Below are positions 15,788 through 62,039 of a stretch of 64,000 nt of DNA, piece by piece. Source of the DNA: Crambe crambe. Taxonomy: Eukaryota > Porifera > Demospongiae > Poecilosclerida > Crambeidae. The position numbers were made by a program, and so were the translations under genes. The stretch is from positions 5,841,488 through 5,905,487 of the forward strand of contig OZ004585.1 in NCBI GenBank assembly GCA_963924555.1. The letters are read 5' to 3'. Below the pieces are notes generated by a model that saw only the letters and a list, made by a program, of their open reading frames with translations, searched no databases and had not been told where the DNA came from. Numbering within the stretch: the first letter of the stretch is position 1; each line of letters begins with the position of its first letter.

Positions 15788-15788
15788 A

Positions 15789-28107: not shown

Positions 28108-28496
28108 CTATCCCAACAGTGTCTAATCATAATACAATTACTGATGCATTCTGTGATAATACATATGCAATGTTAATGTGCCCCATACCACTGCCTACTG
28201 TACGCAGTTCATACATTATAATGTGGGAGCAACTTGTGGACTCAACTCCAATGCAAATAATGAATGATTCAGAGTCAAGAAGATACATACTCTCTCAAGA
28301 TAACAGAACCCTTTCTGTATTGATATCGAACTGCACTGATCAGATGGTATTTCGATGTAAAGTAATAATGCAACGTTGCTCTGATCCTCAACGCTGTCCA
28401 TTGGATACAATAATTGTGGGACCACTTATGGAATTTCTTATACTAGGTACACAACTATACTAGTTATGATAGTACAAGCTAGGTAGATTTGACTTT

Positions 28497-28529
<33 letters not shown>

Positions 28530-31500
28530 GGGGGGAAGAGAGCCTGGTATCCACTGTTTGCGCATGCACAAATTTTTTCTCAGAAATCTGGGAATCAGGA
28601 TATTAACTCGGATATTTCCGCTACGCGATCAACCAGTACTATTACAGCAATGTTGCATGTTATCGATAGTTTTACTCCATGCTCCTTCGTTTCTCTTTTA
28701 GCAGCTGCTCTTTGTTTCTCCTTGGAGAAACTTGAATAAGGAACAATGTATAGCTGTCAAAACAGTCTATGATGGGAAGGATGTTTTGTTTTTCTACCAA
28801 ACTGGTTATAGAAAGATCTGTTACCAGAATCTCCCCTTCATGGTGATGCTGGTGAAGCATAGTGCAGTACTGGTTGCCTCTCCACTAGTTGCTCTGATGA
28901 TCGACAAATGATGCTGTGGCCAGTACTATCTCGCTTCATCAGCCAGGTCAGATAGCCTTCTCTTCTGTGCCCCTGAACCCCTTGTTATGTCCTGGAGGAT
29001 CTAAACATTCTAGACAGATTGCTAGCACTTCTCATCAAAACTTATCATCGCATGATTAATCATAATATAATAAGGGCGAGCGAAGCAACAACTTTAAATG
29101 TTGCATTAAGAGTTGCATGCCCTCTTCTCATAGAGTCTATAAGCCCTATCCCTCTCATTTCTTTTATCAAGCCTTGACCATCTCTGTTCCGCTGATTCAG
29201 AGCTTCTGCCTTTATCCTTCGGTCTAACATTGCTCTTTCTTGCTGCTCAGTTTTGGAGCAGCTTCACTTTCCATTATTTGCTAAAAATTAGCTATTTCGC
29301 GCATGCGCAGTATTTTACCCTCGGGGCTTGATATTGTATTTAATAATTGCACCCTTCAGTATGGAATACCATGATGTATTACACACGAGGTAGGCAATAA
29401 TTATTTCCTGAGGCCACAGACTGAGATTCCCCACTGAGGGTGTAATAAATCATGGTATTCCATGGACTGAAGGGTGCTTTATTCTATAGCTATCTAAAAT
29501 GAGTTAACTAAAAAGATAAGCATAGAGCCTCTACAACTACAGTCGAACCTCGGTTATCAGGACACCTTTGTCCAAACTTTTCTTCCAGGCTGCCAGATAA
29601 GTGAATTAGTCCAGATAAGTGAAATGCATTAATAATTATAGTGTTGTGGTTATGCTGTGTTGTATTATGGGCTAGTACTAACAGCCTAGAACAGTGAAGA
29701 TACTTGTTATGTAGTTGCTAATTATGTGCCTGTGCAAAGCAATCTCAAAAAAAATTCTCAAACCATTTTTAAAATCTGTATTTCCAAATCCGGATAAACG
29801 AGGTTCTTGGATAAATGAGGTGCGGAAAACCATTACACTGTGCTATTATAGCAATGTGCAGCATTTGACAGTGAGCAAGTGAGCAATTCAAGTAGCTGAT
29901 AGCTAGGCTCCAGTGCTGTCAGAGACAAGGATCATGTCAGAGACATGCAAGAGTCATGTAATTGGTGGTTCCAACCGGGAAGCTCCATACATAGAAAGCT
30001 ATAAGTGCTTACCACTAGCACTTAGATAAGCCAAGCACCTACAATCTACTTAATAAGCCTTAAGACAAGAACTAAAACCGTAGCAATAATTTATGCACAT
30101 GCGCAGACATGTAATATGAGCACATGTCACATGGACTAATCAAATTGTCTCATTTTAAAGAGCAATAATTAATTATATAGCTAATTAGTTATAATTATAT
30201 TGCTATACTATCCAGTTTGTACAGAGGCTTGCTTCACTCGTGATTATAATTCAAAAAAGGCGCATACACAAACAGTGAATACCTTTCCCCCATCCCAAAA
30301 ATAAAGGAAAGAGGCTGGGTTCAAGTTTAATAGCTAGGTAGCTTCTAACACCTAGCTGTATAGCTATGATGATGAATGAAGCCATAACGCATAGCAGTAA
30401 AACATAGGAATAAGGAATGTATAATTATGGCTCCAAGTAGCTATAATCAGCACATATTATTTCAGAGAGGAGTGAAATATCAGTGTTTCCATCAACTCAC
30501 AATACAACAAATGGTGACACAGCTATATTTCAGTGCAATGCTATGGGAAGTAATATCATTTTGAGATGGATATTTAACGGATCATCTTGTGGTCCTGATA
30601 GCTGTGAACAGAATGGGATTTCTATAAATGAAACTCAAAGTATGAATAGCAATAGCTTCATCATAAACACTACCTTGGAGATCAAGACTGGTGAGGTTCA
30701 TTCTGTTATAATGGAGAAGAAAATCTACGCTATTAATTGTATAGCAGAACAAAATCTGCAGATGAATAATGCTACTGTTACATTGATTGTAAATCCTCGA
30801 CAGGAAAGGAGTACTACCATAGGTAAGTGTGATATTCATAGTCGTTATAAAACTATGATGCTACAGTTAATTATGTTGAAGTGGATTGTAGCTAATAGCT
30901 AGTTCTTAGTGTGTTGTATGAACTTCAAAATTCAGTTCCAACATTGATTTTCAAGTGATATTCTCTCTTTTAGCTTAAATATAGAGGGCCTGGGAGGACG
31001 AGGGTACCATCATGCCCTCTGTGTGATGATACCCTTTTATCCCCCCACCCTGTTTTTTCATCAACTTTATTCATAGCTGGCTATTTTTTCATTGAACTTA
31101 TATTTTTGATTTATGATTCATCAAAATTAATTTTTCTAGCAACATCAACTCAACCAGATTCACCAGCTTCTCCAGAAAGTATGTACTTTTTACCATGAAT
31201 TTGGTTATGTCATGTTCAGCAATAAAGAAAAGGGGAATGGGGGGGGGGGGGGGGAGGAGGGTGAGTGTCCCCCACACCCTTGTTGTTGTTGTTTTTTCCG
31301 TTGAATTTGCATAATCATAGCTATTTTTTGATTTATGATTCATCAAATTCTTCAAGCAACAACAACTCAATCATTAACATCGGATTCACCAGCTGCATCA
31401 GGTATATACTTTTTACCATAATAAAGAAATTAATCACTAAATCACCCACTGTACAAAGTAGTGTAAAAGCTAAGCTGTAATAACAAGAATAAGTTAATTA

Positions 31501-34500
31501 GTATGAAAATTTGCCCAATTTACAGTGTCATGATGTGGATAAACAGGCACAAATTTTTGCTTACAGGAGTTTTTATAGTTACAGATTTTGCTCTAGAATA
31601 ATGTTCCTCCTCCACCACCAAGATAATAGCTATGCTATGAAGTCCAATTACATTGACATTATAACATTCACTCTTATTTACAGCTAGCCTCATTCCCAGG
31701 CTCTAAAATTTCACAGAGGCCGACAAAAGAGCCTGGTACTTACTGTTTGCACATGCGCCAAAAAGTAAGGATGGAAATGGGATCAATCTTTGTTCTGTAT
31801 ATCCAGCCAACAATCCCTACATATAATTATATCGGGTAGCTTCAGATTATAGTGCAGTAATGTACGTATATATAGGGATTGTTGGCTGGATATACAGAAC
31901 AATCCTCATCCCTACCCTTGTTTCCTTACTTTTTCGAGCAATGGTCATCTCTACATTTTTTTCATTTCACAGAAATGTTTCTTCCCTTATAATAAATCAA
32001 GAGAAAAACCATTTCTTCTGAATGAAAGAATGATGTACGTAGGCTTGAACACATGACTATAAAAAGTACAGAAACAAGGTACTGGCTATGTAGCTACTGC
32101 ATTTGCTCTGCTAACTGTCACAGAATGGACAAACCCTACATCGCTGCATGGACTGCATTTGTCACTGTGCTCTGCTGTCATAAAATTGACATAAAACCCT
32201 ACATCGCTGCAAGGTGTAGCCAAAAAAGGATAATATGGCAGCAGTGATAATTGCTTATTACAAGCTATATTTTATTACACAAATTATTTTTAACATGAAA
32301 TTATGGTATATAAGTTACTTTTTTATCATAATAAATTACCCCTGTACAAAAATAGCATAAAAGCTAAGCTGTAATAAACAAATTAACATGAAAATTTGAA
32401 ACTTAGCTACAGTAACATGATATGGATAAACAGGTACAAATTTTAGCTTTAGGAGTTTACATTATTTATCATCCTGAACTAGTTCAAAATAGTTATTTCA
32501 TCAGTTGTCATCTGTTATCAATAATTCTGAGTATTATTAAACTCTGTGCTTTCACTATAAGTTACAATTTATTCAATCAGTGAAGAATAAACCTAAAGCC
32601 AGTCCAGATGATTATGTTAAGGCCATATTCCCTCAGTATTCTCCACACCTTCAAAATAAACTTTAATTTTGAGTTTGATTTCAACATGAAACTTTGGTAT
32701 TTAATCATAACTAATTGACTATATGGCTGAAACCTTCTCATTGTTGTAGCTCACTGAGTGTCTGCAATAAGTACTTAAGTGTGTAATAATTATGTAGTTT
32801 AGACAACAATTTTCGAGGAATTTGATGTCATGTGACCAGCAATAAATTATTTATTGTTTGTCACATGACTTATGACTAATCAGATCTTCTGAAATGTGTA
32901 ATTTAAAACACAATCTTATTGCAAACTTGAGGAACTGTGCTGAAGTAGACAGTGGAAGATCCACTAAGACTACCGGTATGAATTTCCAGCCTCAGTCCCT
33001 AGCACCTATGGCAGTGCTTACTGTGAGAGAGGAATTTTAACGAATTTAGCATTTCACTAGTTACATTTGATTCAGGAATTTGCTTCATTAATTTTTTTGA
33101 ATATCATTGAACTTGATCAATAATTGTATTCTAACGTGTATCAGAGCTTGCTATAGGTACTATAGTATGGTGAGGCATAGGAGTGTATGGAATCTGATTA
33201 GACCCAAGTCATGTGACCAGCAAAAAAAAACTTATGACAAGCCAAACTAACCTTGTGTCTTTTAAACTCAGATGATGCACATGGTTACGCCTTCAGCTTG
33301 TGCATTATTAACCTCATGCACTATTGCATCATCCTCGTGTGCACACATTAAAAGACTTAAAGTTAGCTAAGTATGTTATTACAGAGTAGCACCCCTCATT
33401 CGACCCCCTATTGTGGCTAACTTCGCTCACAATTAAACAAACACTTGAACAGACCATAACGAATTGAGCAATATCTTTTAATCCTGGTGCAGCTGTTTAC
33501 ATACGGTAGGCTGCAAAAAAAAGTTCCCGTTCCGTCCACGTAGAACTGGCGTTGCACGCCTTGACCGTTGCCGTTTTCACACAGTCCCCCGTGCGTTTAA
33601 TTTTCTACACCGTTTAACATCAAGCGTTGCACGCCTGTTCAACGTTCACGAAGAAACGGTAAGAAGTATAGCCATGTACGTACGTAGGTGAAAAAACGTT
33701 ATTATAAAACGTAACCCTAAGCCTAAAAGCTTATAGAACTATGCGTAGCTATCTCTCTAGGCTGACTAGCTATCTCTCTAAGCTGACTAGCTTATGTTGG
33801 CACTAGAGCTAGCTAGCTAGCTAGTTCTGCACTTACAGCTAGCTATAGTATAACACCACCATGATGTTCTATTATCAGTGAGATGAAACTTTACAGACAC
33901 GATGAAGGCAGAAGAAATTGTACCACCACTAGCATGCACAAGTCGATATCTAGCTACGTAGAGCTCAAGGCCTTCCTCGGAGACTGCCTGCAGGTCATCT
34001 CGCTGTCGATCTGCTGCTGATGAACGTTTTTGCTGGAATAACTGCGTGCTTTCATACCGTAAAAACGTTTAGTAATTTCGAACCCAACTACGTACGTTTA
34101 ATTGGGCCGTTCAACGCAAACGCCTGCTTTGCGTTCATAAAGCGTTCGCACACGGTTTTTTTTACAACGCTTGAGCGTTCTACGGACGTTGTACGGCAAC
34201 GCAACGGAAACTTTTTTATGATGAAGACCGTAAAATCATCTTGTCAAATTCACTAGGCAAAACCGTTCATAGCTATTATTTATGCCTTCATTATAGGGTC
34301 ACAATTCACAATAATTGGAGTTGGAGTGGGAATTGCAGCTATTTCATTGATCGCAGTCATAATAACGATAATAGCTGCAAAGATCAGAATAAATATTATT
34401 CAAGTTCGCACTTCATCTCTAAAAGAGACTGGAATGCTACCAACATATTCCATAACAGAAGAAAACCATCTTCACTCAGTACTATGTGTAACTGTTGAAC

Positions 34501-35347
34501 AGCCATGTGTAAATGTTGAACAGAATGAACAATCAGATGAAGAAAAGCAAGAAGTTGAAATAAGTAATGATGATCCAAATTACAGCACTGTAAGATCACT
34601 AAAAGGCACACCAAGCAATAAACGTCCAGCATTTGTTCTACCACATATGGATGCTGGGTATGATCTATTACATATATAGTGCCTGCATGTGATGTTACTT
34701 CATTTAATTTACATATGTATTCATGTATCATATTCTGAAAAGTAGTGCACACAGAAGAGTAGGTCTGCATGGAGAGCTGATCTTGAGTAGCTACACATTT
34801 CTTAATATAACCCTGGCTGCCATGCAGCTGTGTTAGTGCAGCTCTAGCTTCTAGCGTTGGTGTGTGCAATGATTAAAACAAGGACTGAAGCAAGCCCCTA
34901 TATATAGCTAGACAGTATAGTATTTGCATGGTTTTGAATTTTCTCTCTTAAGTGCTCCATGCTCATATGTACATCACATTCAAGTATGCAGTATAACTAA
35001 TTGAATTGTAGGTACTGTTATTAAAATCACATCTAGCTATAGTTCTAGCTCAATTTTTTATGTTTCTCAGGTTAGGACAAGAATCTAGGAATGCTCAGGT
35101 TCAGTCAAACTCAGCCAAAAACAAAGCAGAATCCTCACCAGAGAAAGTAATGTATGAGGAAATCTTAGATCACCCTAACACATACAACATTGTAAAGTGC
35201 CCTGCTTATGCAGTATCTAATGAAGTGGCTAATCCTTGTCATCATGAGTATGAAGATATAAAACTTTGCAGTTATCTAGGTGTCCATGACGATGATGATA
35301 AAATCCAACAATGTTTAGCCCATGGAGTGAATGATGAAAGAAATTAA
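28108..35347 (+). CDS. Gene B: Ig-type transmembrane receptor with tyrosine-motif tail
   Basis: Exons by eye: 28108-28446, 30466-30822, 31140-31178, 31357-31401, 34297-34657, 35071-35347; all junctions are GT..AG and frame-compatible. Exon 2 of the family (first listed) has the Ig pattern Cys..IMWEQ..LSVL..FRC. The next exon has FQCNAMGSN, LRWIFNGSSC and NCIAEQN. Two short Ser/Thr/Pro exons form a stalk. The fifth starts with a membrane span (FTIIGVGVGIAAISLIAVII, then TIIAA) followed by basic KIRIN. The cytoplasmic tail of about 190 residues has no kinase but has PTYSIT, NYSTV, MYEEILDHPNTYNIV, EYEDI and SYLGV. YEEI is the known preferred Src-family SH2 ligand, and YEEI-x6-YNIV is close to an ITAM (YxxL/I-x6-8-YxxL/I). 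The signal-peptide exon is missing locally; 6596-6908 fits in phase. The likely role is surface recognition with phosphotyrosine signalling, by inference. Confidence 0.75.
28490..28540. repeat. Poly-T/poly-G homopolymer run
   Basis: A T run followed by about 20 G and a further G-rich stretch inside the first long intron of gene B. Frames across it are artefacts. Confidence 0.9.
29349..29477. mobile_element. Foldback element GCACCCTTCAGT
   Basis: GCACCCTTCAGTATGGAATA and its inverse near 29477 pair for about 38 bases with small mismatches, through CCATGATGTATTACAC. It lies in an intron of gene B. Confidence 0.75.
29540..29823. mobile_element. Tigger/pogo-like MITE, diverged
   Basis: The left end CAGTCGAACCTCGGTTATC is a typical pogo/Tigger-type terminus. 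The right end carries the inverse in degraded form (CGGATAAACGAGGTTCTTGG). The interior is not coding. Limits are approximate. Confidence 0.5.
29830..30465. other. Gene B intron, nothing recognised
   Basis: AT-rich intron sequence with one GATAAGCCAAGCACCTACAA phrase related to the 26.7 kb repeats. Confidence 0.4.
31756..31992. mobile_element. MITE-3 foldback, well preserved
   Basis: GTATATCCAGCCAACAATCC on the left pairs with GGATTGTTGGCTGGATATAC on the right around an AT-rich loop holding TCGGGTAGCTTCAGATTATA. The right end is TTTCATTTCACAGAAATG. Confidence 0.8.
32005..32247. mobile_element. Half copy of the 11.0 kb foldback type
   Basis: Shares CATTTCTTCTGAATGAAAGA, GACTATAAAAAGTACAGAAA, GCTGGCTATG-like and CCCTACATCGCTGCA with 11026-11381. 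The right arm is missing. Confidence 0.65.
32250..33512. other. Gene B intron, no further feature
   Basis: AT-rich. TAAATCACCCACTGTACAAA at 31440 and AAATTACCCCTGTACAAAAA at 32334, with following AAAGCTAAGCTGTAATAA in both, reveal a diverged internal duplication of about 130 bases. Confidence 0.5.
33513..34220. mobile_element. CpG-rich TIR element in the last long intron of gene B
   Basis: The left end GCAAAAAAAAGTTCCCGTTC and right end, read inward as ATAAAAAAGTTTCCGTTGCG, are inverted. The interior is unusually rich in CG and ACGTT words and contains GCGTTGCACGCC twice. It ends about 75 bases before the membrane-span exon. The superfamily is unknown. Confidence 0.5.
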
Positions 35348-36222: not shown

Positions 36223-38595
36223 ATGGCATATTTGCTTATTAGCACTCTATTGTTGTACTCCATTCATATTGTCTTGGGGACTCCTGTTCTGGACTTCTAC
36301 TTGCCTTCACCAAGGGAAGCTCCAAATGTGTTCAGGCTTGAGTGTCATAGTGTACTACGTAGATGGTGATTCAGCTGTCCCTGATGCAGGATTTGAGTTT
36401 ACTGACAGTATGAGTGTACTTATCAGAAATACATCAACAGATGTCAATGAGGACTACTTCACATATGACATAACTGAAGATTTTGAGGCAAGTGTTCGCT
36501 GTATTACTGGAGAAGAATACTCAGAGGCTGTCATGTTTTATGGTAATTACATCCAATGTTAAGAGTTACCTGTACAATTATGACACAATAATATTCTTGA
36601 GAAGTCTCATGTATGTAGTTAACATTGGATATTGAACTCTTTGTAGCTCTCACTGTTCAAAGTGACAACCACTACACAAAGTTCTTCATTTGTCTATCAC
36701 TATTATTAAATGAAGAACATTGTATATTATTAATAATGTAGATATAGAATTCATTTTTACCATTATCTCAAAGGGGTAGCCCAAGATATCTGCCAACTGA
36801 CTGGTATTTCATTCTACGTAGCTATTAGCTAGATACAATAAACATGGAAAATGAAATAAGAAATTTCTACATAGCTACATGGTTGCTAAAATGGACAATC
36901 TTGGGGAATTTCTAGTTATCATGGAAAAATTAGCATTATATTGCTGCTATTGATAACCAAGTAGTCATGTAACATTAAAGGGATGATCATAATTATTATA
37001 CAACACTTTATTATTGAATAAGAATTTCCACTAGGACTATAGCTTTGGAACCACCAGGGCACTTGAGGACAATTCAGTGCATATGTGCTAAAAACCCATG
37101 AGCCTACTTCGGGGAGTAGTTAGAATTTATGATTTGGTGTGACAAAAAATTAACTTGACACTGACCACACCTCATACTAAAAAAGCTTTGTTTCCATGAA
37201 ATTTTACTGGGGCAAGTGCCTCAGTTGCCCTAATGGTAGCTACTCCTCTGTACTTACGTAGCTATACATTAATATACTTGGAGGTCAGTGATGATCTTTA
37301 CTATAACTATAGTGAAACATTCAGGCTATGCAATTATTAATTCAGTTTGTAGCATCCATGCCATATAGCTACAGTTATGATGCTTAATCTTAATGCAGCT
37401 ATCCCAACAGTGTCTAATCAAACTACCATGACTGGTGCATTCCGTGATGATACATATGCAATGTTGATGTGTCCCATACCACTGCCTACTGTACGCAGTT
37501 CATACACTATAAGGCCACTATTAATAGAATGATTGTTTCCTGTCCACCGCCCGTATATTGAAAATGTCACCGCATCAAAAAATATTATTACTGCCTAGCG
37601 CCTGCCATTGCTCATGCGCGCAGTAGAGCGCGCACATTTGGCTTCACATGTACATGCAGCTCTTTTTGGGAAAGCCCGTGGTGAATGACTAGTCTCGCGG
37701 GCCGCGAGACTATAGTGAATGATGAAGACAGGACCCTTGAGACAAACAACGAAGCAGTAATAGAATAATTATAATAACCACCCGCCCGCAGCACTTGTGG
37801 ATGTTTTCTTGGACAGGAAACTAGGATTCTATAAATAGTGGCCTAATATGGGAGCAACTTGTGGATTCAACTCCAATACAAGTAATGAATGTTTCAGAGT
37901 TAAGAGGATAGCTATGTGCTCTCTCAAGATAACAAAACCCTTTCTGTACTGATATCAAACTCTACTGATCTTCAATGTAATGTAATAATGCAACGTTGCT
38001 CTCAGCGTTGTCCATTGGATACAATTGTGGGACCACACATGGAAGTTCTTATAATAGGTAAGGTAAGATCATACAAGATTTAGAGCTAAAAGAATTTATT
38101 ACACAAATAAGGTAGCTATTATAGATAATGAAGCATGCATGCTACACCTTCACCTAAGGGAATAACTTTATCAAGGCTACAAGGCTATACAAGTATAATT
38201 AATATGTGATTCCTTATGTATTATTTTAGAGAGGAGTGAAGTATCAGTGTTTTCATCAACTCAGAATATAACAAATGGTGACACTACAATGTTTCAGTGC
38301 TATGCTAAAGGAAGTAATATCAGTGTGAGATGGATGTTTAATGGATCATCTTGTGATCCTGATAGCTGTGAACAGAATGGGATATCTATAAAAAGTACAG
38401 ATAGCAATAGCTTTGTGATCAACACTACTTTAGAGATCAGGAGTAGTGAGCTTCATTTGGTTATAATGGACAAGAAAACCTACACTATTCAGTGTATAGT
38501 AGAACAAAATCTGGGCCCCATACAAATGAGTGGAACTATAAATGCTACTGTTACTTTGACTGTACTTCCTCAACAGGCAAATAGTGTTATGATAG
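36223..38595 (+). pseudogene. Gene C: broken paralogue of the receptor family
   Basis: Three family exons in the right order: 36223-36542 (signal peptide starting MAYLLISTLLLYSIHIVLGT, then first module), 37399-38057 (second module, interrupted), 38230-38595 (third module, intact, ending in phase 1 at GTAAGT). Exon 1 changes frame near 36345, so the signal peptide and YFTYDITEDFEASVRC lie in different frames. Exon 2 is split by a 331 bp MITE and in addition has a stop and a 4-base length change just before CTCTCTCAAGATAAC. No membrane, tail or kinase exon follows before unrelated repeats. It is closest to gene B by eye ([27 protein letters not shown]). A pseudogene is the best reading; sequence errors alone would not explain the MITE. 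Confidence 0.8.
37513..37843. mobile_element. PIF/Harbinger-type MITE inside gene C exon 2
   Basis: Starts GGCCACTATTAATAGAAT and ends ATTCTATAAATAGTGGCC, with inverted similarity continuing to TTTCCTGTCC. It is flanked by TAA on both sides. Removing it and one TAA restores the exon sequence CACTATAATATGGGAGCAAC, as in gene B. A 3-base TWA duplication and GG termini are typical of PIF/Harbinger (Tourist) elements. Confidence 0.85.
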
Positions 38596-39304
38596 GTAAG
38601 TGTGACAATAATATCCATTCCTTTGTATGCTTGTAGCTGTGGGTTCAGTGGATCCATGCTCTTTGAAATGTACATAGCAATACTCAATAATTATCCCTAT
38701 AGCTATCATCTCCATCTCATTAGCCTGCATGGTCATCACAATACATGCATGGCGTTATATTGAAAATATTTCCCAAAATCCTTCGGTGTATATTGCATGA
38801 GGTTATACGTAGGAGCTGATCTTCAACATCCAGTAATGTATTGAGTCTTTAAACTTCAGTGCTCTCTCTGATTATGAATAAGCATGTAGTTCAAATTCAG
38901 TAGTATTAATAGATACAGGCTAACAAACTCAATAATCAAGGTCTCATATACAGTTCTACCAGAAATCAAGTTCTAGCTAGCTGCTTTCCTGTCTAGCAGA
39001 ATGTTCTCACACAAATAATTGACACACTAAAAGGGGGGAAATACATTCATAAAATAACTGATGCATGCAGTTAATTAGAGTTCAAAGGGAGAGCTATATA
39101 TCTTCCAGGCATGTAGTGCATGGTTTACTTTGATATGCAGGATTAGCTATATCCTAAGACTTGAATGTTAAGATTCTAATTCACTCACATTCACTCAACT
39201 GATTGATACCATATGAATGAGGCTAAAAAATCACCAAACACTATTCCATTAGCAAATTTTTCATCCTTGCATTTTGGAGGTGGCACATCATTAAATTAAT
39301 AATA
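38596..39304. other. Intergenic, nothing recognised
   Basis: AT-rich sequence after the last recognisable gene C exon; no further family exon in any frame. Confidence 0.5.
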
Positions 39305-40012: not shown

Positions 40013-40023
40013 AATAATAATAA

Positions 40024-42520: not shown

Positions 42521-42818
42521 TTCGAGATACTATTCCTACTTCACTCCCTTGGCCCTTGATCATGCATGGGAGTGAAGTAGGAATAGTATCTTGTACTTGA
42601 TGATGGGTAAGGGTCACTTCACTAAGTTCACTCTCTTGCATGCAGTTATAGCTAATACATATTCCAGCTAGATTTTTGGGCCATACTGCTTCGATGCTGC
42701 AGTACTTGGTTTTCATAATGAAGCTGCAGTTATAATAGCTATAATAATTATTATGTGCTAAATTTGTGGTCATCCCTACTTCACATTTTTATTTCGAAGA
42801 AATTTTTTGCATTCACTT
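42521..42818. mobile_element. MITE-1, loop and right arm, with a small insertion
   Basis: Begins inside the left arm at GAGATACTATTCC. The right arm carries an extra 35-base stretch with TAATAATTATTATGTGC before CATCCCTACTTCAC. Confidence 0.75.
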
Positions 42819-43852
42819 TTTTGCATTCTTTTTCTTTGTGATTATGAAAATTGGTAGACACTAAAGGCTTCCTTGATTGAACTAAATTTATTTAATGATC
42901 AGTATTTCATTCTGTTCAGGGAGGAGAGTTTGAAGGATGATCATCTACAGTGTAATGGAGTACTGAAAGGAGTGAACATTTTAAAAAGTGAACAGCATTA
43001 GCTAATTGTTACATATGTGATCACTGAAATAATTATTGAGATGGTACGTATGTCTTGCTTGAGGGAGGAGTATGGGGAGTTTATGCATTTGGTGTAGTGA
43101 TCATAATAGTGGATGCCATCAAATGGCCACATCCTGTGCAGGTGTTATATGAGGAGAACTGCTATTAATTGCCCCACCCCTTTTATGAGGTAATATCGCG
43201 AAGATTTTTTTCATACGAGGCTGCAGCACATTATAGATAGCCCAGCTAGATTTTAGGCTATCCCTACTTAACCTTTTTATTTGAAGAAATTTTTTACGCT
43301 CACTTGTTTCTATCCTTTTTCTTAGTGCTTGAAGTTGAATGAGGGAGGCTACAGTACAGTACTATACAAAGCCAGCTCTACATAAACCTCTTTTGTATGT
43401 GCATACAGTGTCTCTGGTTGAAGAATTTGTTCAGCTATTTAAGTTTTGTTGATATAAAACTTTACAGCAACAGCAATGTAAATGACATGTACACGGCATG
43501 GTGAAGTGAGCTGACTACACTACAGCAAAGTACTGGCTATAATGCTACTATAGGATGAGCATCTGTACTGTAATTCAGCAAGGAGTGACTGGAACATCAT
43601 CAGATAATAAATGAAGACCTTGGCTATAGCTAAACTTAAGCTTACGTGGCTCCGCCCATAAGCCCCGCCCCCTTCAAAATGGCGTAGCAGTGTTCCGAGT
43701 GCTATCGAATAGTGAAGTAGAGCCTTAGTCAAAACTAATAGCAAAAGATCAGCCTCTAGGTGCCGCTCTAACAGATGGCCAAAGCAGAATTTTGATGACT
43801 ATAGCCAGTAAGTCGGTACGTCGATCTGATTATTATTATTATTATTATCCTT
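42819..43852 (-). mobile_element. Y module copy 6, reversed
   Basis: Reverse complement of the long Y form, ending at the (TAA)n run against a MITE-1. It lacks the CTGCTAATCTTTCTACG stretch before the GC box. Confidence 0.75.
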
Positions 43853-46271: not shown

Positions 46272-46521
46272 ACAAGTGAGCGTAAAAAATTTCTTCTAAA
46301 TAAAAAGGTTAAGTAGGGATAGCTTAAAATCTAGCTGGGCTATAATAATGTACTGCAGCCTCGTATGAAAATAATCCCTACATTTACACCTGCCAGGTAG
46401 TGGATGTAAATGTAGGGATTATTTTCATACGAGGCTGCAGTACATTATTATAGCCCAGCTAGATTTTAAGCTATCCCTACTTAACCTTTTTATTTAGAAG
46501 AAATTTTTTACGCTCACTTGT
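46272..46521. mobile_element. Complete MITE-2 foldback
   Basis: 250 bases; arms nearly perfect, loop ACACCTGCCAGGTAGTGG. Confidence 0.9.
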
Positions 46522-46978
46522 AATAATAATAATAATAAGGATAATAAATATAAGATCGACGTACCGGCTTACTGGCTATAGTCATCAAAATTCTGCTTTG
46601 GCCATCTGTTAGAGCGGCACCTAGAGGCTGATCTTTTGCTATTAGTTTTGACTAAGGCTCTACTTCACTATTCGAGCACTCGGAACACTAGCCAATCTTT
46701 CGACGCCATTTTGAAGCGCACGTCGGTAGGGGGCGGGGCTTATGGGCGGAGCCACGTAAGCTTCTCAGTTTAATCGTTTAGGTAGCTAATTTTATTCTTA
46801 TCTGATGATGTTCCAGTCACTCCTTGCTGAATTACAGTACAGATGCTCATCTTATAGTAGTAATATAGCCAGTACTTGGCTGTAGTGTCTCAGTTGAAGT
46901 GACGGTCACTACTGCCATTCAATTCTTTACATACACAAACTTACATTCAACTTCAAGCAATAAGAAAAAAGGATGGAA
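46522..46978 (+). mobile_element. Y module copy 9, short subtype
   Basis: Tandem duplicate of copy 8, differing by a few bases and a small deletion of ATAT before CTGATGATG. Confidence 0.75.
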
Positions 46979-47240
46979 ACAAGTGAGCGTAAAAAATTTC
47001 TTCTAAATAAAAAGGTTAAGTAGGGATAGCCTAAAATCTAGCTGGGCTATAATAATGTACTGCAGCCTCATATGAAAACAATCCCTACTTTTACAACTGC
47101 CATAGCTAGCTATAGGTAGTGGATGTAGATGTAGGGATTGTTTTCATATGAGGCTGCAGTACATTATTATAGCCCAGCTAGATTTTAGGCTATCCCTACT
47201 TAACCTTTTTATTTAGAAGAAATTTTTTACGCTCACTTGT
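46979..47240. mobile_element. Complete MITE-2 foldback
   Basis: 262 bases with a loop like that of 16587-16847 (TAGCTAGCTATAGGTAGTGG) rather than that of its tandem neighbour, so the duplication was followed by exchange or separate insertion. Confidence 0.9.
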
Positions 47241-47247
47241 TATTATT

Positions 47248-47696
47248 ACAAGTGAATGCAAAAAATTTCTTCGAAATAAAAATGTGAAGTAGGGATGCTA
47301 TTATAACTGCAGCTTCATTATGAAAACCAAGTACTGCAGCATCGAAGCAGTATGGCCCAAAAATCGAGCTGGAATATGTATCATAACTGCATGCAAGAGA
47401 GTGAACTTAGTGAAGTGACCCTTACCCATCATCAAGTACGAGATACTATTCCTACTTCACTCCCTTGGCCCTTGATCATGGGAGTGAAGTAGGAATAGTA
47501 TCTTGTACTTGATGATGGGTAAGGGTCACTTCACTAAGTTCACTCTCTTGCATGCAGTTATGATACATATTCCAGCTCGATTTTTGGGCCATACTGCTTC
47601 GATGCTGCAGTACTTGGTTTTCATAATGAAGCTGCAGTTATAATAGCATCCCTACTTCACATTTTTATTTCGAAGAAATTTTTTGCATTCACTTGT
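47248..47696. mobile_element. Complete MITE-1 foldback
   Basis: 449 bases. TATTATT separates it from the preceding MITE-2. Both arms share the same variant (TCGAGCTGG and its inverse CCAGCTCGA), showing arm-to-arm copying or an inherited variant. Confidence 0.9.
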
Positions 47697-48023
47697 TTGC
47701 ATTCTTTTTCTTTGTGATTATGAAAATTGATAGACACTAAAGGCTTCCTTGATTGAACTAAATTTATTTAATGATCAGTATTTCATTCTGTTCAGGGAGG
47801 AGAGTTTGAAGGATGATCATCTGCAGTGTAATGGAGTACTGAAAGGAGTGAACATTTTAAAAAGTGAACAGCATTAGCTAATTGTTACATATGTGATCAC
47901 TGAAATAATTATTGAGATGGTACGTATGTCTTGCTTGAGGGAGGAGTATGGGGAGTTTATGCATTCGGTGTAGTGATCATAATAGTGGATGCCATCAAAT
48001 GGCCACATCCTGTGCAGGTGTTA
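47697..48023 (-). mobile_element. Y tail fragment, reversed
   Basis: Tail third of Y in reverse, cut at CCTGTGCAGGTGTTA where an X copy begins. Confidence 0.75.
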
Positions 48024-49305
48024 TCAGAGAGTGCGGTAGCACTCTCTAAGTAGGGATGGCAGGTCAAAGTCCATAGGACAGTATAAACTAAAAACTCTTC
48101 TTTCTCTTCTACCCTTACTCTACAGGTTCTCAGAAGGCTACAGTGAATTATTATATCTACAAAGAAGAGAGGAGAATGTTCAAAAGCCAAAAATTCATTC
48201 GCCAACATAAGAAAAAAACGAGTTCTAAAATTGACTTTTCGTTCTTTTTCTTTATAATAATAATAATAATAAGGATAATAATAATAATAATAAGATCGAC
48301 GTACCGACTTACTGGCTATAGTCATCAAAATTCTGCTTTGGCCATCTGTTAGAGCGGCACCTAGAGGCTGATCTTTTGCTATTAGTTTTGACTAAGGCTC
48401 TACTTCACTATTCGATAGCACTCGGAACACAGCTGCTAATCTTTCTACGCCATTTTGAAGGGGGCGGGGGTTATGGGCGGAGCCACGTAAGCTTAAGTTT
48501 AGCTATAGCCAAGGTCTTCATTCATTATCTGATGATGTTTCAGTCACTCCTTGCTGAATTACAGTACAGATGCTCATCCTATAGTAGCATTATAGCCAGT
48601 ACTTGGCTGTAGTGTGGTCAGCTCACTTCACCATGCCGTGTACATGTCATTTACATAGCTAGCTGTTGCTGTAAAGTTTTATATCAACAAAACTTAAATA
48701 GCTAAACAAATTCTTCAACCAGAGACACTGTATGTACCTACAAAAGAGGTTTATGTAGAGCTGGCTTTGTATAGTACTGTACTGTAGCCTCCCTCATTCA
48801 ACTTCAAGCACTAAGAAAAAGGATAGAAACAAGTGAGCGTAAAAAATAAAAAGGTTAAGTAGGGATAGCCTAAAATCTAGCTGGGCTATCTATAATGTGC
48901 TGCAGCCTCGTATGAAAAAAATCTTCGCGATATTACCTCATAAAAGGGGTGGGGCAATTAATAGCAGTTCTCCTCATATAACACCTGCACAGGATGTGGC
49001 CATTTGATGGCATCCACTATTATGATCACTACACCAAATGCATAAACTCCCCATACTCCTCCCTCAAGCAAGACATACGTACCATCTCAATAATTATTTC
49101 AGTGATCACATATGTAACAATTAGCTAATGCTGTTCACTTTTTAAAATGTTCACTCCTTTCAGTACTCCATTACACTGCAGATGATCATCCTTCAAACTC
49201 TCCTCCCTGAACAGAATGAAATACTGATCATTAAATAAATTTAGTTCAATCAAGGAAGCCTTTAGTGTCTATCAATTTTCATAATCACTAAGAAAAAGAA
49301 TGCAA
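48024..49305 (+). mobile_element. X copy followed by Y module copy 11
   Basis: X 48024-48255, (TAA)n to 48293, then a long-form Y with half MITE-2. This is the same order as 17092-18389. Confidence 0.75.
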
Positions 49306-49754
49306 ACAAGTGAATGCAAAAAATTTCTTCGAAATAAAAATGTGAAGTAGGGATGCTATTATAACTGCAGCTTCATTATGAAAACCAAGTACTGCAGCAT
49401 CGAAGCAGTATGGCCCAAAAATCTAGCTGGAATATGTATTATAACTGCATGCAAGAGAGTGAACTTAGTGAAGTGACCCTTACTCATCATCAAGTACGAG
49501 ATACTATTCCTACTTCACTCCCTTGGCCCTTGATCATGGGAGTGAAGTAGGAATAGTATCTTGTACTTGATGATGGGTAAGGGTCACTTCACTAAGTTCA
49601 CTCTCTTGCATGCAGTTATAATACATATTCCAGCTAGATTTTTGGGCCATACTGCTTCGATGCTGCAGTACTTGGTTTTCATAATGAAGCTGCAGTTATA
49701 ATAGCATCCCTACTTCACATTTTTATTTCGAAGAAATTTTTTGCATTCACTTGT
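49306..49754. mobile_element. Complete MITE-1 foldback
   Basis: 449 bases; termini and loop as in the family. Confidence 0.9.
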
Positions 49755-50460
49755 ATGAGGAGAACTGCTATTAATTGCCCCACCCCTTTTATGAGGTAAT
49801 ATCGCGAAGATTTTTTTCATACGAGGCTGCAGCACATTTTAGATAGCCCAGCTAGATTTTAGGCTATCCCTACTTAACCTTTTTATTTGAAGAAATTTTT
49901 TACGCTCACTTGTTTCTATCCTTTTTCTTAGTGCTTGAAGTTGAATGAGGGAGGCTACAGTACAGTACTATACGAAGCCAGCTCTACATAAACCTCTTTT
50001 GTAGGTACATACAGTGTCTCTGGTTGAAGAATTTGTTTAGCTATTTAAGTTTTGTTGATATAAAACTTTACAGCAACAGCAATGTAAATGACATGTACAC
50101 GGCATGGTGAAGTGAGCTGACTACACTACAGCCAAGTTCTGGCTATAATGCTACTATAGGATGAGCATCTGTACTGTAATTCAGCAAGGAGTGACTGGAA
50201 CATCATCAGATAATGAATGAAGACCTTGGCTATAGCTAAACTTAAGCTTACGTGGCTCCGCCCATTAGCCCCGCCCCCTTCAAAATGGCGTAGAAAGATT
50301 AGCAGCTGTGTTCCGAGTGCTATCGAATAGTGAAGTAGAGCCTTAGTCAAAACTAATAGCAAAAGATCAGCCTCTAGGTGCCGCTCTAACAGATGGCCAA
50401 AGCAGAATTTTGATGACTATAGCCAGTAAGTCGGTACGTCGATCTTATTATTATTATTAT
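49755..50460 (-). mobile_element. Y module copy 12, reversed, truncated
   Basis: Begins inside Y at ATGAGGAGAACTGCTATT directly after a MITE-1 and runs to the (TAA)n end. Confidence 0.75.
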
Positions 50461-50921
50461 AAAGAAAAAGAACGAAAAGTCAATTTTAGAACTCGTTTTT
50501 TTCTTATGTTGGCGAATGAATTTTTGGCTTTTGAACATTCTCCTCTCTTCTTTGTAGATATAATAATTCACTGTAGCCTTCTGAGAACCTGTAGAGTAAG
50601 GGTAGAAGAGAAAGAAGAGTTTTTAGTTTATACTGTCCTATGGACTTTGACCTGCCATCCCTACTTAGAGAGTGCTACCGCACTCTCTGATAAAGAAAAA
50701 GAACGAAAGGTCAATTTTAGAACTCGTTTTTTTCTTATGTTAGCGAATGAATTTTTGGCTTTTGAACATTCTCCTCTCTTCTTTGTAGATATAATAATTC
50801 ACTGTAGCCTTCTGAGAACCTGTAGAGTAAGGGTAGAAGAGAAAGAAGAGTTTTTAGTTTATACTGTCCTATGGACTTTGACCTACCATCCCTACTTAGA
50901 GAGTGCTACCGCACTCTCTGA
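50461..50921 (-). mobile_element. Two X copies in tandem, reversed
   Basis: 50461-50691 and 50692-50921, joined by CTCTCTGATAAAGAAAAAG. The 171-codon plus-strand frame simply runs through both copies. Confidence 0.8.
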
Positions 50922-50936
50922 TTAATATTATTATTA

Positions 50937-51795: not shown

Positions 51796-51799
51796 AATC

Positions 51800-54714: not shown

Positions 54715-54719
54715 ACAGG

Positions 54720-56787: not shown

Positions 56788-59700
56788 ATGATGGCATTAG
56801 GGCTTATATTTTGGAGCTTCATGATCCATATGGTTTTAGGCACTCCTACTCTGGACTTCCATTTGCGTTCAAAATTTGATCTAATTGTAGTACGATTTGA
56901 ATGCATAAACAATGATGGTGAACCTGACTCCACTGCGAGATTTGAGTTCCGCAATAGTACAAGAGATTTGATTGCACAGCGAGGTACTGATGCTAGTCAA
57001 AACTTTCTGACCTACAACATTACCGAAGATTCTATTATTCGATGCATAGTAGGGGAGGAACACTCAAACGAATTTATATTTGCTGGTAAGGACACTATGA
57101 GCTAATAACTATCCTCATCAGGCAGTGCCTGCCTTACATCACCCAACATGTGATCATGTACATAGCTACTTAAATGGGAAAAACTAAAAGGAAAGTGGGA
57201 TAGATATATATAGCTACGTATGGGAGTTGCCTCAAATATTTCAAACACCTTAGCAGCCACTCAAATTGAATGACTAATACACATTCTTACTGTGGCTTGT
57301 TGCTGCAGGTACATTAAGGATAGGAAATTTGCATAATAATTCTTGCTCCTATGTGTGCCTGTGAACTGTGTGGAAAACTGATTGGGTTATAATTACTACT
57401 CTGTAGCTTTTTACACTCATTTAATAACAAACCGTTAGATTCTCAAAATACGTAGAAGTAGAGAGTTGTTGTAAACTATACAGTCAGCAAACTCCCAAGT
57501 ATATGACACTTAAAAAAACTTTTTGAATAATCATGCAAAACTGAGAATAGTGACTAGCTAGCTAGCTACTGTTCTAGATCAAAAGCCTGGATGATAATCA
57601 TGATGTTTATGTGTACATTGTTTGAAGAAATGACACATTCAGATGGACAGGTTCATTAATGTGTGGGGTGTATATGGTTCATTAATGTGTGACAGCACAC
57701 TGGCATATACTGGATTGCAATCTCTGTCATGAGAAAGGTACTCCAATTATTATGCCTAGAGTATTATCGTAATTTACAACTCAATCTCTGAACTTATATT
57801 ATAGCCTTCTCTGTCAATGGAGTTTGTGTATCTGATTGATATGAAACATTTGTCTGTACATAATATAGTATTAGCTATTATGAAATAATGATGAAAATAA
57901 CTTTGCAATACATATTCAAAAGCCACAGCAGGAGGACACAGATTATATAGCTACATGAATATTCGTAGTTCCTATTGTGTATGCAGTATAATTGTATACA
58001 CACTAGCTAATGTGATCAACTCTGATTGTGCTGCCTATGCTTATTTACCTTCTCATGCAACTTATAGGGAGTTTGTTTGCATAACTTATGCTCCATCATA
58101 TAACTGTATATCCGTATAATTTCATGCTATACATGCCACTAGTAACAGCATACATGTCTCTGACATGGAATAAAACATTAATTTTAGCAGTTATGCTTCT
58201 ATTGTTGCCAGTGCAATCAACTGGCCTGCATGCTTCAGCCAGCTCTGAAATATCTCATCCCTTAGAATGGGATTTGTCTACCTATAAGTAACATCAAATT
58301 CTGAATCCTTAATTTCACTTAGCTATTGTTCTGTTCAGCTTATACTAGGGCCAACTACTACTAGCACTATTATTGCTGCAGCTATTCCAACTGTGTCAAA
58401 TCAAACTGTGTCCATTGGTGCATTCCGTAATACATCTGCAATGTTGATGTGCCCCATACCACTGCCTACTCTACGCAGTCTTTACACTATTATGTGGGAA
58501 CAAATAGTGGACTCAACTCCAATACCATTAGATACAGGAAGATATATACTTTCTCAAGATAACAGAACCCTATCCATATTAGTGTTAAACTCTTCTCAGA
58601 CGGTATTTCGATGTAAGTTAAATTTGCGACAGTGCTCACCATCTAGACCTGAGAACTGTTTACTATTTGATGTGGAAGGACCTTTCATGGAAATCAATGT
58701 TTTGAGTAAGCTCATGATACATGTATGCAATACGTACTAACACATTAAACCTATGATTTCAGAGAGAAGTGAAATAACTGCTTTCTCTTCATCCCAGACA
58801 GTAACAAATGGTGACATTGCAATATTCCAGTGCAATGCTAAAGGAAGTAACATCAGTTTGAGATGGAATTTTAATGGATCATTTTGTGGTCTTGATAGCT
58901 GTGAACAGAATGGAATCTATATAGATAGGACTCAAGACACAAACCTCATGATCAATTCCACATTAGAGATCAGGACTGGTGAGCTGCACTCCATAATAAT
59001 GGAGAAAATAAACTACACTATTCAGTGCATTGTGGAAGAAAATCTGGATTCTTCATCACTTATGATAACAAGGACATTGACTGTGGATCCTCAACAAGTA
59101 ACTGAATCAGATATTGGTGAGTAAATTCTGCTTGTTTGCATCTGCAAAATGGTCATTCATAAAATCATTAATTTTTAGGAGTCACAACTACTTTCATTTC
59201 ATCTTCTGATACAAATGTATCTACAGTGGTTGCCAATGACAGAGTCAGCTCTTCAACTATGAATGTTTCCAGTACTGCTAGTGAAAACTTAAGCTCTTCA
59301 ATTACGGCTATCATAATTTCAGTCCCTGTTGTCGTTCTACTATCAGGAATGTTGATTGGAATAATTCTGATTATCTATTGGACAAAAAGAAAACGAGCCA
59401 AAAAATTTGACACTGAATTAAAAGAGAAAAAGTAACTTTTTAAATAATATCAGTAATGAGGACCTAGCTGCATGGAGTCAGCTAGAGTAGATATCATCTC
59501 AATAGGAAGATGGTCAGGTCCCAATAGCTTCATGTGGTGCTTAATAGAGACCATGATGGTCATTTTGGATGTCTGGATAACCTGTTAGCCAATTAATTGT
59601 AAATCTAGAATATACATTTTATCACATACATCCTTTTTTCAGGTCACTAAATATAAAAAATGAATGTCCACAGCATAATTATGGTATGAAATAAATACGT

Positions 59701-62039
59701 AAGATAGTTAGCTACATAATCTATTTTCTTATAAAAAAATGGTATTAACTCTAGCAAAGAATGCAGCATTGAGAGTTGAAACTATTGGATCTTCTGAATT
59801 GTATGCTAAAAAATTTCTTGACTCAAATTTGCTGATACCTGGTCGTCACATTCAGCTAAATCATACGATTGGTCAAGGTTGTTTATTATAAGAGGACTTA
59901 CAATGGAAACTCCAGTAAAGGATACCCCTCACAAAGTAGTATCTTTGAAAGAGGACAATCTCTATACAAAGAATAAAAGATCTTAAGTGTGTCCATTATT
60001 TGGAGATATTCCACAGTAATCTATTTGAAATTAACTAGGATCCTGCAGATTATACTCAAAAAATTTTCACCAAGATTCTATCCTCAGATTCTCACTCAAA
60101 CCCTACTGTTATTCTACAGTATGCAGTGGAACCTCTGATTTAATTGCTACGTAGTTTTCAGTACAGTACACTTGTTTTGATAAAACTGTACACTTACTAA
60201 TAGGCTGAAGACTGACATTTCTAGTGAACCCAGAGATTGAGAACCCAAGCTCAACCCACATTTACATAATTCCTGTCTGACCTAAGTGCCAAGAATCTCA
60301 GCCTAAAGTTCTTAGATTCCAGTTGTTCTCTAACATAATCTACAGGAGCTTACAGCACTATATCTATAATTTCATAGGTGAATTTGGATTGGTATATAAA
60401 AGTTATCTCACAGGCTGGCAAGGAAGGACTACAGCAGAAGTTGTAGCTGTCAAGACTCTGAAAAGTAACAACTGCATTAGTCATTATGACAATCCATTAA
60501 AATTAGGCATTTTAATTCATTAAAGATTGGTAGCTAAAAACTAAAATACTATTGTGATGATGAGCTATAAAATTGCTGTGCCTATTATACTTCATAATAC
60601 GAAGAGGTACATGTGGGTAGCTATATACGTACTTACCTCCAACATTACTTTCCATGCCAATAATTAAGTCATGTGTACACAGGTTTTTATTCAGCCAAAA
60701 ATATTGAAGACCTGATAGCAGAAAGTGAAAGAATGAAGAGATTCAACCACCCAAACGTTATGGGTTTAATTGGAGTTTCTATTGATGTGGGAGAAAGGCC
60801 ATTTATTGTCATGCCTTTTATGGCAAATGGCTCTCTCCTGACTTACCTGAAGAAGAATAGATCCCAATTCATAGTAGAAGAAGATGCTGGAAAAGAAAAG
60901 GTAATTAAATATATATACAGTAGCTAGCTGCAATTAGCTATTATAATTTTTTTCCTTCAAGATTGAAGATGCCCAAAGGAAGTTACTATCAATGTGCCTT
61001 CAAGTTTCAAAGGGAATGAAGTATCTTGCCAAACACAAGTTTGTGCATAGAGACCTAGCAGCCCGCAATTGCATGTAAGTTGCTAGCTATATGAATTATT
61101 TGTTAGAGTGTAATTTTTAGCAAAATTAATCGTATAAAAATAGTCAGTCCTTGAATCTCATTCAGGATAGATGATAAGTTCGTGATCAAGGTGGGAGATT
61201 TTGGCCTCTCTGAAGAAGTATACTCCACAAATTACTTCAGACAAGGGGAAGGAGCTTCAGTAAAGCTTCCAGTCAAATGGATGGCCTTGGAAAGTCTTCT
61301 TGATGGGATCTTCTCTGAAAAAACAGATGTAGTAAGTAGCTATATAGCTAGACAGTATTACTATGATATGAGTGGGTGAGTACAGTTCTTTGAAAAGGTC
61401 ACATAATAAACAGAGAAGGGGGCAGTTCCTCTCTCTCCTTCTCTCCAAGAAAATTCAGCAAAGAGTTGCAATCCTTCTCACTCCAGACTCTCTCTGTCCA
61501 AGAACTGATAATCCATGTTCATTAGTGCAGTCATAAGCTATAGAACTTAATTGCACCTGGGCAGCAGGTGAAATTGTGGCCAGCTATAAGATTATTTTGC
61601 ATAATTATAAATCACAGTGGTCATTTGGAGTAACTTGCTGGGAGATATTCAGTCTTGGCCACACCCCATACCCTGCTGTTGATCCATTTACACTGATTAA
61701 ATATCTTAAAGATGGAGGGAGATTGGAGAAGCCCAACAATGCAGGTTGCAGTCATCAAGTGTAAGTTTTGTGTGTGCATGCATGCATGCACTTGAAAGCT
61801 ATACTGACATAGAGAACTAGCTAGCTAGTTTGCCTGGCATACATTAGCTATATCAAAAATAATGGGTGACTTTATAACATAATTCCTATAGGTATGACTT
61901 GGTCATTCAGTGCTGGGAAGAATCACCTGAAAAACGACCTTACTTTGAAGATTTGGTAAAAGAAATTAACATACTACTTGAAGAAGTAGCTGGATACCTT
62001 GAATTCTCAGCATTTTCTGGTAAAGGTCCAACTGCATAA
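56788..62039 (+). CDS. Gene A: receptor tyrosine kinase with Ig-like ectodomain
   Basis: Twelve exons give one 755-residue frame: 56788-57085, 58382-58705, 58763-59116, 59179-59431, 59643-59683, 59755-59877, 60378-60464, 60683-60900, 60962-61074, 61166-61331, 61618-61760, 61892-62039. Signal peptide 1 to about 20. First module to 99; Ig-like second ([20 protein letters not shown]) and third ([23 protein letters not shown]) modules to 325. Ser/Thr stalk; membrane span about 369-392; basic stop KRKRAKK. Kinase: GQGEFGLV (463-470), VAVK Lys490, MPFM hinge with Met537 gatekeeper, HRDLAARN (595-602), DFG (615-617), loop [24 protein letters not shown]. All catalytic residues are present. [20 protein letters not shown] and the hinge resemble Met/Axl kinases. 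It should phosphorylate tyrosines at the plasma membrane after ligand binding; the ligand is unknown. Confidence 0.9.
58154..58287 (+). other. Possible alternative first exon of gene A
   Basis: Inside intron 1 a frame starts [20 protein letters not shown], a textbook signal-peptide pattern, then [19 protein letters not shown]. It reaches a GTAACA donor at 58288. An acceptor CTACTACTAG ending at 58364 would join it in frame to [13 protein letters not shown], the start of the second module, giving a receptor without the first module. The evidence is sequence logic only. Confidence 0.35.

What the first reader, a model, noticed from the sequence alone, without database searches (positions are those of the whole stretch)
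28108..62039. One ectodomain family joined to two different signalling ends
Genes A and B share the order signal-peptide module (located remotely for B), Ig-like second module (CPIPLPT..MWEQ..FRC) and third module (SCEQNGI), with the same phase-1 junctions. A then has a complete tyrosine kinase; B has a kinase-free tail with at least five Tyr motifs. Together with pseudogene C this looks like a tandem, birth-and-death receptor cluster in which a kinase receptor and a possible substrate or co-receptor recognise related ligands. Exon shuffling is easy because all ectodomain exons are symmetric 1-1.
Basis: partly seen in the sequence, partly recalled or inferred. Interest (0 to 1): 0.8.

Follow-up and report, generated by a model that had tools for sequence, protein, structure and literature searches.

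The report
Sponge receptor cluster with swapped tails
In a sponge, a large neighbourhood of related cell-surface receptor genes shares one kind of outer sensor that is joined to different inner ends, some with their own enzyme switch and some with only docking sites, which suggests that one kind of signal can be turned into different answers.

Summary
Gene A (12 exons, 56788-62039) splices into a 755-aa receptor tyrosine kinase; gene B (7 exons, 6596-35347) into a 576-aa receptor with the same three-module ectodomain and a kinase-free tail. B's first exon lies at 6596-6908, outside the given span; a paralogue's spacing supports this. C is a pseudogene.

Of 82 genes anchored on the SCEQNGI module, 70 lie on one contig within 2.2 Mb. 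By proximity, 26 have a kinase, 25 a short tail like B's, 14 a long docking tail, and 17 none assigned. On the module's tree, kinase and kinase-free ends switched at least twice. Two neighbouring genes agree at 99.3% of 297 module bases but carry different tails. The short-tail exon also sits behind another ectodomain.

Best reading: a tandem Ig-superfamily receptor cluster in which related heads drive an intrinsic kinase or SH2-docking tails. Ligands, transcripts and phosphorylation are untested. Closest known: Botryllus FcoR, Hydractinia Alr, sponge RTK/SAM (recalled). New variant of a known kind.

The parts
56788..57085 (+). Gene A exon 1: signal peptide + module 1
   Evidence: hydrophobic N-terminus, in-frame splice
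58382..58705 (+). Gene A exon 2: module 2 (1-1)
58763..59116 (+). Gene A exon 3: module 3, Ig domain, SCEQNGI (1-1)
59179..59431 (+). Gene A exon 4: Ser/Thr-rich stalk + transmembrane
59643..59877 (+). Gene A exons 5-6: juxtamembrane (59643-59683, 59755-59877), ends in the glycine loop
60378..62039 (+). Gene A exons 7-12: complete tyrosine kinase ([21 protein letters not shown])
   Evidence: sequence; PF07714 3.7e-84
6596..6908 (+). Gene B exon 1: signal peptide + module 1, 21 kb upstream of exon 2
   Evidence: spacing in paralogue at C8:4850863
28108..28446 (+). Gene B exon 2: module 2 (1-1)
30466..30822 (+). Gene B exon 3: module 3, Ig domain (1-1)
31140..31401 (+). Gene B exons 4-5: Ser/Thr/Pro mini-exons 31140-31178 and 31357-31401 (1-1)
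34297..34657 (+). Gene B exon 6 (T1): transmembrane + first part of tail (NYSTV)
35071..35347 (+). Gene B exon 7 (T2): tail with YEEI, YNIV, CPAY, YEDI, YLGV
36223..36541 (+). Pseudogene C module 1, frameshifted (approximate bounds)
   Evidence: two pieces in different frames, 36256-36345 and 36266-36538
37395..38047 (+). Pseudogene C module 2, split by an insert of about 332 bp (37512-37843) with inverted ends
38229..38597 (+). Pseudogene C module 3, frame open
2797..3066 (-). Module 1 of the mirror-image gene B', which runs out of the window to the left (M2 C8:5831375, M3 C8:5828930, tail C8:5816088, all -; the tail match holds a stop)

Best explanation
This is a tandemly duplicated cluster of Ig-superfamily cell-surface receptors in a demosponge, very probably Crambe crambe. 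Shown from sequence: the members share one set of ectodomain exons, and that set stands before different signalling ends (joined at phase-1 exon borders in A and B, the two genes checked). A is an ordinary single-pass receptor tyrosine kinase. B is a single-pass receptor with no kinase and a tail rich in possible SH2-docking tyrosines. A third set has a longer docking tail. Inferred mechanism: related ligands cluster these receptors on the membrane. Kinase-type receptors phosphorylate themselves. Kinase-free receptors are phosphorylated by a partner kinase (a kinase-type sibling in a mixed cluster, or a Src-family kinase) and recruit SH2 proteins, so that one binding specificity can be read out as different signals. 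Duplication, exchange of ends (or gene conversion of heads) and loss keep remaking the set.
For: Intact spliced models. Genome table: 82 module-3-anchored genes; ends by proximity: kinase 26, T2 22, T1+T2 3, T1 1 (its 339-aa frame reads like a long tail), long tail 13, unassigned 17; 70 of 82 on C8:3.92-6.13 Mb. Tree of 49 of 82 module-3 exons: kinase versus kinase-free needs 2 changes, both forced by starred branches; long versus short tail 5 changes on the best tree, of which starred branches force 2-3. Neighbours C8:4189373 (long) and C8:4199569 (short) agree at 99.3% of 297 module-3 bases. Tails look constrained: dN/dS 0.53 over the 15 long tails kept of 18 fetched; YxxPhi enriched in the 5 of 15 long tails tested (0-72 of 20,000 shuffles as high) and in B (94 of 20,000); an ITIM-type pattern in 14 of 15 and YxN in 11 of 15, no chance control. 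Short-tail Tyr kept at 90-100% at four of five sites among 22 distinct rows. Module 3 is Ig: 10 of 10 members scanned match Ig_3, best 6.5e-8. Downstream parts exist: 135 SH2 matches; three open frames on C15 carry SH2 and a tyrosine kinase domain together.
Against: No transcript, phosphorylation or ligand data. End assignment is by proximity (first end on the same strand within 14 kb); search lists were capped, so counts are lower bounds. 17 of 82 are unassigned and at least one of these (C18) has another tail. In long tails Tyr columns are no more conserved than Ser or Ile columns (mean 0.90 against 0.91 and 0.89), and in T2 many non-Tyr columns are as conserved. The T2 tail alone is weakly or not enriched for YxxPhi (839 of 20,000 for one array copy; 5,295 of 20,000 for the C6 copy), and 5 of its 22 rows hold a stop. 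Of 18 long-tail loci fetched, 3 are split between frames and 4 more end early. Canonical ITAM is not met. No gene-wide positive selection (module 3 dN/dS 0.36-0.73 by clade; in close pairs module 3 0.55 and module 2 0.64, with dN>dS in 30 of 259 and 9 of 52 pairs), as one might expect in non-self recognition. Structure prediction never ran.
Confidence: 0.6

Rival explanations
1. The kinase-free members are adhesion molecules or decoys that hold the kinase receptors in check (dominant negative), and their tails carry little signal of their own.
For: Same ectodomain as the kinase receptors; the sponge SAM proteins (recalled) were read as adhesion molecules; T2 tail alone is weakly or not enriched for YxxPhi; 5 of 22 T2 rows hold a stop.
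Against: Tail tyrosines are among the conserved columns; the open long tails have dN/dS 0.53 and are strongly enriched for YxxPhi; the T2 tail was kept behind another ectodomain.
Confidence: 0.2
2. The cluster is an allorecognition or immune receptor complex with activating and inhibitory members, as in Botryllus fuhc and Hydractinia Alr. This is about the ligand and is compatible with the best explanation.
For: Size, copy number, pseudogenes, near-identical heads with different tails, long and short tails nearly alternating in C8:4.14-4.33 Mb; the described allorecognition loci have IgSF receptors with ITIM and YxxPhi tails (PMC12065747, passages).
Against: Paralogue divergence shows no gene-wide dN>dS; alternation is only weakly non-random (p 0.04-0.05); no allele data.
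Confidence: 0.25
3. Gene B is a false join: its tail exons belong to another gene, or its remote first exon does.
For: 21 kb first intron and 3.5 kb from module 3 to the tail (with two mini-exons between); borders chosen by eye; no transcripts.
Against: In-frame splice with no stop over 7 exons; the paralogue at C8:4850863-4832481 repeats the same order and similar spacing, and that at C8:4876781-4870740 has M1-M2-M3-T1-T2 in 6 kb.
Confidence: 0.05
4. Ordinary lineage-specific drift of a receptor kinase family, in which kinase loss left remnants with no selected role.
For: Broken copies are common: of 18 long-tail loci 3 are split between frames and 4 more end early; neutral copy-number change would look alike.
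Against: The kinase-free ends are exons of their own, shared by many genes, with dN/dS 0.53 in the open long tails; they are not leftovers of kinase exons.
Confidence: 0.12

Closest known systems
Botryllus schlosseri fester co-receptors (FcoR) of the fuhc locus
   Same: Large clustered IgSF family (53 loci), type I membrane proteins, tails with ITIM, hemITAM or YxxI/L/V core motifs, genes encoded in pairs (PMC12065747, passages seen)
   Different: Tails described there carry ITIM, hemITAM, core Tyr motifs and in many loci SH2; no kinase domain on these receptors is mentioned in the passages seen; chordate; ectodomain has V-Ig, sushi and C2-Ig; function was studied there, not here
Hydractinia Alr family
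   Same: ITAM/ITIM motifs on candidate allorecognition genes of one locus (as cited in PMC12065747, passages)
   Different: No kinase-ended sibling that I know of, and an unrelated ectodomain (both recalled); cnidarian
Geodia cydonium RTK and sponge adhesion molecules (SAM)
   Same: Sponge Ig-like ectodomain with and without a tyrosine kinase end (recalled; only a passing mention of a Geodia Ig-like adhesion molecule was seen, PMC11999971, passages)
   Different: Few genes described; no cluster or multi-Tyr tail known to me (recalled); sequences not compared here
Vertebrate paired receptors (KIR, LILR, SIRP; recalled)
   Same: Closely related ectodomains with different tails, tandem birth and death
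   Different: Activating members use adaptor proteins; none carries its own kinase domain (recalled)
Met/RON, TAM, RET and ROS receptor kinases
   Same: Kinase domain of A aligns along nearly its full length (E about 1e-60 to 1e-64)
   Different: No orthology claimed; ectodomains not compared

Membership tests
Receptor tyrosine kinase (gene A) | Signal peptide, extracellular Ig, one transmembrane helix, complete Tyr kinase with catalytic residues | tested here: met
   PF07714 3.7e-84; glycine loop, [15 protein letters not shown] present; one strong TM stretch and a hydrophobic start; activity not tested
Receptor tyrosine kinase (gene B) | Kinase domain after the transmembrane helix | tested here: not met
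   no kinase exon between the B tail and 60377; frame ends in a stop at 35347
Immunoglobulin superfamily | Ig domain in the ectodomain (module 3) | tested here: met
   10 of 10 members scanned match Ig_3 (best 6.5e-8; the A copy 2.5e-4, below Pfam's cut-off); profile matches Roundabout (1.9e-7) and, weakly, antibody chains
Immunoglobulin superfamily | Ig fold of modules 1 and 2 | tested here: inconclusive
ITAM receptor | YxxI/L-x6-12-YxxI/L | tested here: not met
   B has YEEI-x6-YNIV (V at the second +3, relaxed match only); array T2 tails have YEEI followed by YSIT or YSFT
ITIM receptor | [S/I/V/L/T]xYxx[I/L/V] in the tail | tested here: met
   one in B (VMYEEI); 14 of 15 long tails (no chance control); binding of SHP phosphatases not testable
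Allorecognition receptor complex | High allelic polymorphism and link to fusion/rejection | not testable with these tools
   one haplotype, no relatives held
Allorecognition receptor complex | Clustered IgSF genes with signalling tails | tested here: met
   (tails by proximity, motifs only)
Geodia RTK/SAM | Sequence homology of ectodomains | not tested
   no eukaryote sequence collection on hand

The most novel reading that the evidence does not exclude
The cluster is the self/non-self receptor complex of a sponge: one Ig-type head family wired to three outputs (own kinase, long ITIM-type docking tail, short YEEI tail), with heads and tails exchanged between siblings. That would extend paired-receptor logic to sponges and add an intrinsic-kinase arm that is not mentioned for the allorecognition loci in the passages seen.
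Probability: 0.22. Interest if true: 0.88.

Novelty: new variant of a known kind. Interest (0 to 1): 0.62.

Why it matters
Sponges reject foreign tissue, but I know of no receptor shown to be responsible (recalled). A cluster of about 70 receptor genes, with closely related heads joined to a kinase, an ITIM-type scaffold or a short tail, is a concrete candidate set. It also shows within one genome how a kinase receptor family and a docking-tail receptor family can share and exchange parts.

Tried and rejected
Tried: structure prediction of modules 2 and 3: each time the machine was busy, so no fold evidence. Strict alternation of long and short tails as a two-gene unit: only weakly non-random (1 long-long neighbour pair, p 0.052; 15 switches, p 0.037; 22 labelled genes of 23, the unlabelled one dropped), so not claimed as a rule. 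Canonical ITAM in the short tail: rejected. Positive selection on the heads: not found gene-wide. B as a false join: thought unlikely. Papers: nine topic searches of the open library listed no paper on this cluster that I could recognise from title and abstract; subscription journals are not held.

Rows kept: M3 all 87; M2 97 of 104; M1 91 entries from 92 of 99 rows; short tail 30 and T1 5 of 81 (rows on C6, C9, C14, C18, C20, C66, long-tail rows and small repeats left out); long tail 18 of 34; kinase exon 36 of 150 (itself 150 of 211 candidates; I kept those on contigs that carry ectodomain modules). Tree: 49 of 82 genes, those whose sequence I held, one of them with a stop. Long tails: 15 of 18 fetched loci, the three split between frames (L095-L097) left out. 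T2 alignment: distinct rows only, the C6 family represented by one.
Full report
What is there. The window is C8:5841488-5905487 of a 143.1-Mb genome in 119 contigs. Eight contig lengths seen here (C6 9.08, C12 7.63, C13 7.57, C15 7.24, C16 7.06, C18 6.57, C20 6.34, C21 5.67 Mb) equal chromosome lengths printed for Crambe crambe odCraCram1.1 to the second decimal. C8 is 9.17 against a printed 9.18, the total 143.14 against 143.20 Mb, and the count 119 against 124 scaffolds (PMC12166358, passages). I therefore take the host to be this demosponge; that is an inference.

Gene models. Spliced by hand, with borders chosen to keep the frame, A gives 755 aa and B 576 aa, both with start codon, GT-AG introns and no internal stop. 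Each has a hydrophobic start and one strong transmembrane stretch. A has a full tyrosine kinase (PF07714, 3.7e-84; nearest solved kinases Mer, Ret, Met and Ros at about 1e-60 to 1e-64, with one deposited EGFR chain, 9p9u, scoring higher at 2.4e-86, which I did not examine). Module 3 is an Ig domain (10 of 10 members scanned match Ig_3). Modules 1 and 2 have no Ig match in Pfam and are called Ig-like only from their Cys/Trp pattern.

B's first exon. It lies at 6596-6908, 21 kb upstream. Its inverted copy at 2797-3066 sits in a palindrome whose arms (1-4035 and 5666-9689) are 99.5% identical; it is the start of a mirror-image gene that leaves the window to the left. The paralogue at C8:4850863-4832481 has the same order with a 10.6-kb first intron. 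B's extra intron length may be due in part to a repeat array at 13946-21384; the paralogue's intron was not read.

Genome-wide count. Searches with modules 1, 2 and 3 found 99, 104 and 87 matches; 76 of the 87 module-3 rows are on C8. I anchored genes on module 3, took the first end exon on the same strand within 14 kb, and obtained 82 genes: kinase 26, T2 short tail 22, T1+T2 3, T1 1, long tail 13, none 17. The single T1 gene (C8:4828771) has a 339-aa open frame that reads like a long tail, so I speak of 25 short and 14 long. In the 2.2-Mb cluster there are 70 genes: kinase 22, T2 22, T1+T2 3, T1 1, long 13, none 9. Among the 17 without an assigned end, one on C18 has a different short tail, and one at C8:5808929 has A-type transmembrane and juxtamembrane exons but no kinase found within reach. 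These assignments rest on proximity, not on transcripts, and the search lists are lower bounds.

Tails. The long tail is one exon; the 15 kept copies (of 18 fetched) are 202-332 aa, transmembrane segment included. An ITIM-type pattern stands in 14 of 15, YxN in 11 of 15 and PxxPx[RK] in 9 of 15 (no chance control). YxxPhi is enriched in the 5 of 15 tails tested (0, 20, 10, 72 and 6 of 20,000 shuffles as high). Mean dN/dS is 0.53, but Tyr columns are no more conserved than Ser or Ile columns. Three further copies are split between frames and four of the 15 end early. B's tail has 5 YxxPhi among 7 Tyr (94 of 20,000). The T2 exon alone is weakly or not enriched (839 and 5,295 of 20,000), 5 of its 22 distinct rows hold a stop, and its tyrosines are 90-100% conserved at four of five sites, as are many other columns. 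T2 also stands behind other exons on C6 (L066, L067; no C6 row in the module searches; no confident Pfam family). What such motifs bind (Src, SHP2, Grb2 SH2 domains) is recalled, not tested.

History. On the tree of 49 module-3 exons, kinase versus kinase-free needs 2 changes, both forced by starred branches; the three kinds together need 7, against a possible minimum of 2 and a shuffled mean of 21.2. Long versus short needs 5 on the best tree; starred branches force 2 (long) or 3 (short). The rows of B's type form one clade, apart from the array's short tails, which lie with the long-tail genes among kinase clades. C8:4189373 (long) and C8:4199569 (short) differ at 0.7% of 297 module-3 bases. 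The trio at C8:4.169-4.179 Mb matches that at 4.534-4.545 Mb in order and spacing, with two of three sister pairs starred, which points to block duplication. Gene conversion of heads could give the same pattern as exchange of tails; I could not tell them apart. Heads evolve under mild constraint; gene-wide positive selection is not seen. Module 1 gave only two close pairs (ratio 0.89).

How it likely works. Shown: same heads, different ends, intact frames in A and B, conserved tyrosines, kinase residues present. Inferred: co-clustering by related ligands, phosphorylation of kinase-free tails by kinase siblings or Src-type kinases (three open frames on C15 hold SH2 and a tyrosine kinase domain), and SH2 recruitment. 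Not known: ligand, cell type, and whether any pair works together.

Against what is known. Allorecognition loci of Botryllus (53 FcoR loci, passages) and, as cited there, Hydractinia have receptors with ITIM and related tails. The kinase-ended siblings are the added feature here. Kinase and non-kinase Ig receptors of a sponge were described long ago in Geodia (recalled). I therefore file this as a new variant of a known kind.

Noticed in passing
window 1-9689: Large palindrome: 1-4035 and 5666-9689 are 99.5% identical in inverse orientation; one arm reaches the window start, and the arms hold divergent first exons of two B-type genes.
   Followed up: partly
window 13946-21384 and 42771-50922: Arrays of repeat pieces of about 0.6-2.6 kb, roughly 88-99% alike, in both orientations, shared by the two places (the 46 longest pairs listed); mobile-element-like.
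   Followed up: no
L066, L067 (C6:7.80 and 7.84 Mb; further matches at C6:5.0-5.14 and 7.74-7.91 Mb): The B-type T2 tail exon stands behind other ectodomain exons in what looks like another tandem family.
   Followed up: partly
C20:3625685-3626509 (L094): A long docking tail of the same family on another contig, with no module 3 found near it.
   Followed up: no
C5:1.468-1.522 Mb, C9:1.487-1.614 Mb, C12:1.75-1.84 Mb: Runs of SH2 matches, on C5 often a few hundred bases apart, as if multi-SH2 genes were tandemly expanded.
   Followed up: no
C16:4.97-6.05 Mb: 26 tyrosine kinase matches in one region, 20 of them in open frames of 525-879 aa, so apparently intron-poor.
   Followed up: no
window 37512-37843: Insert of about 332 bp with inverted ends inside module 2 of pseudogene C, MITE-like.
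   Followed up: partly
L038 (C18:1801195-1804557): A member with a different short tail (TM followed by NLAYGSKP and FAYESPSYGSS), perhaps a fourth kind of end.
   Followed up: partly
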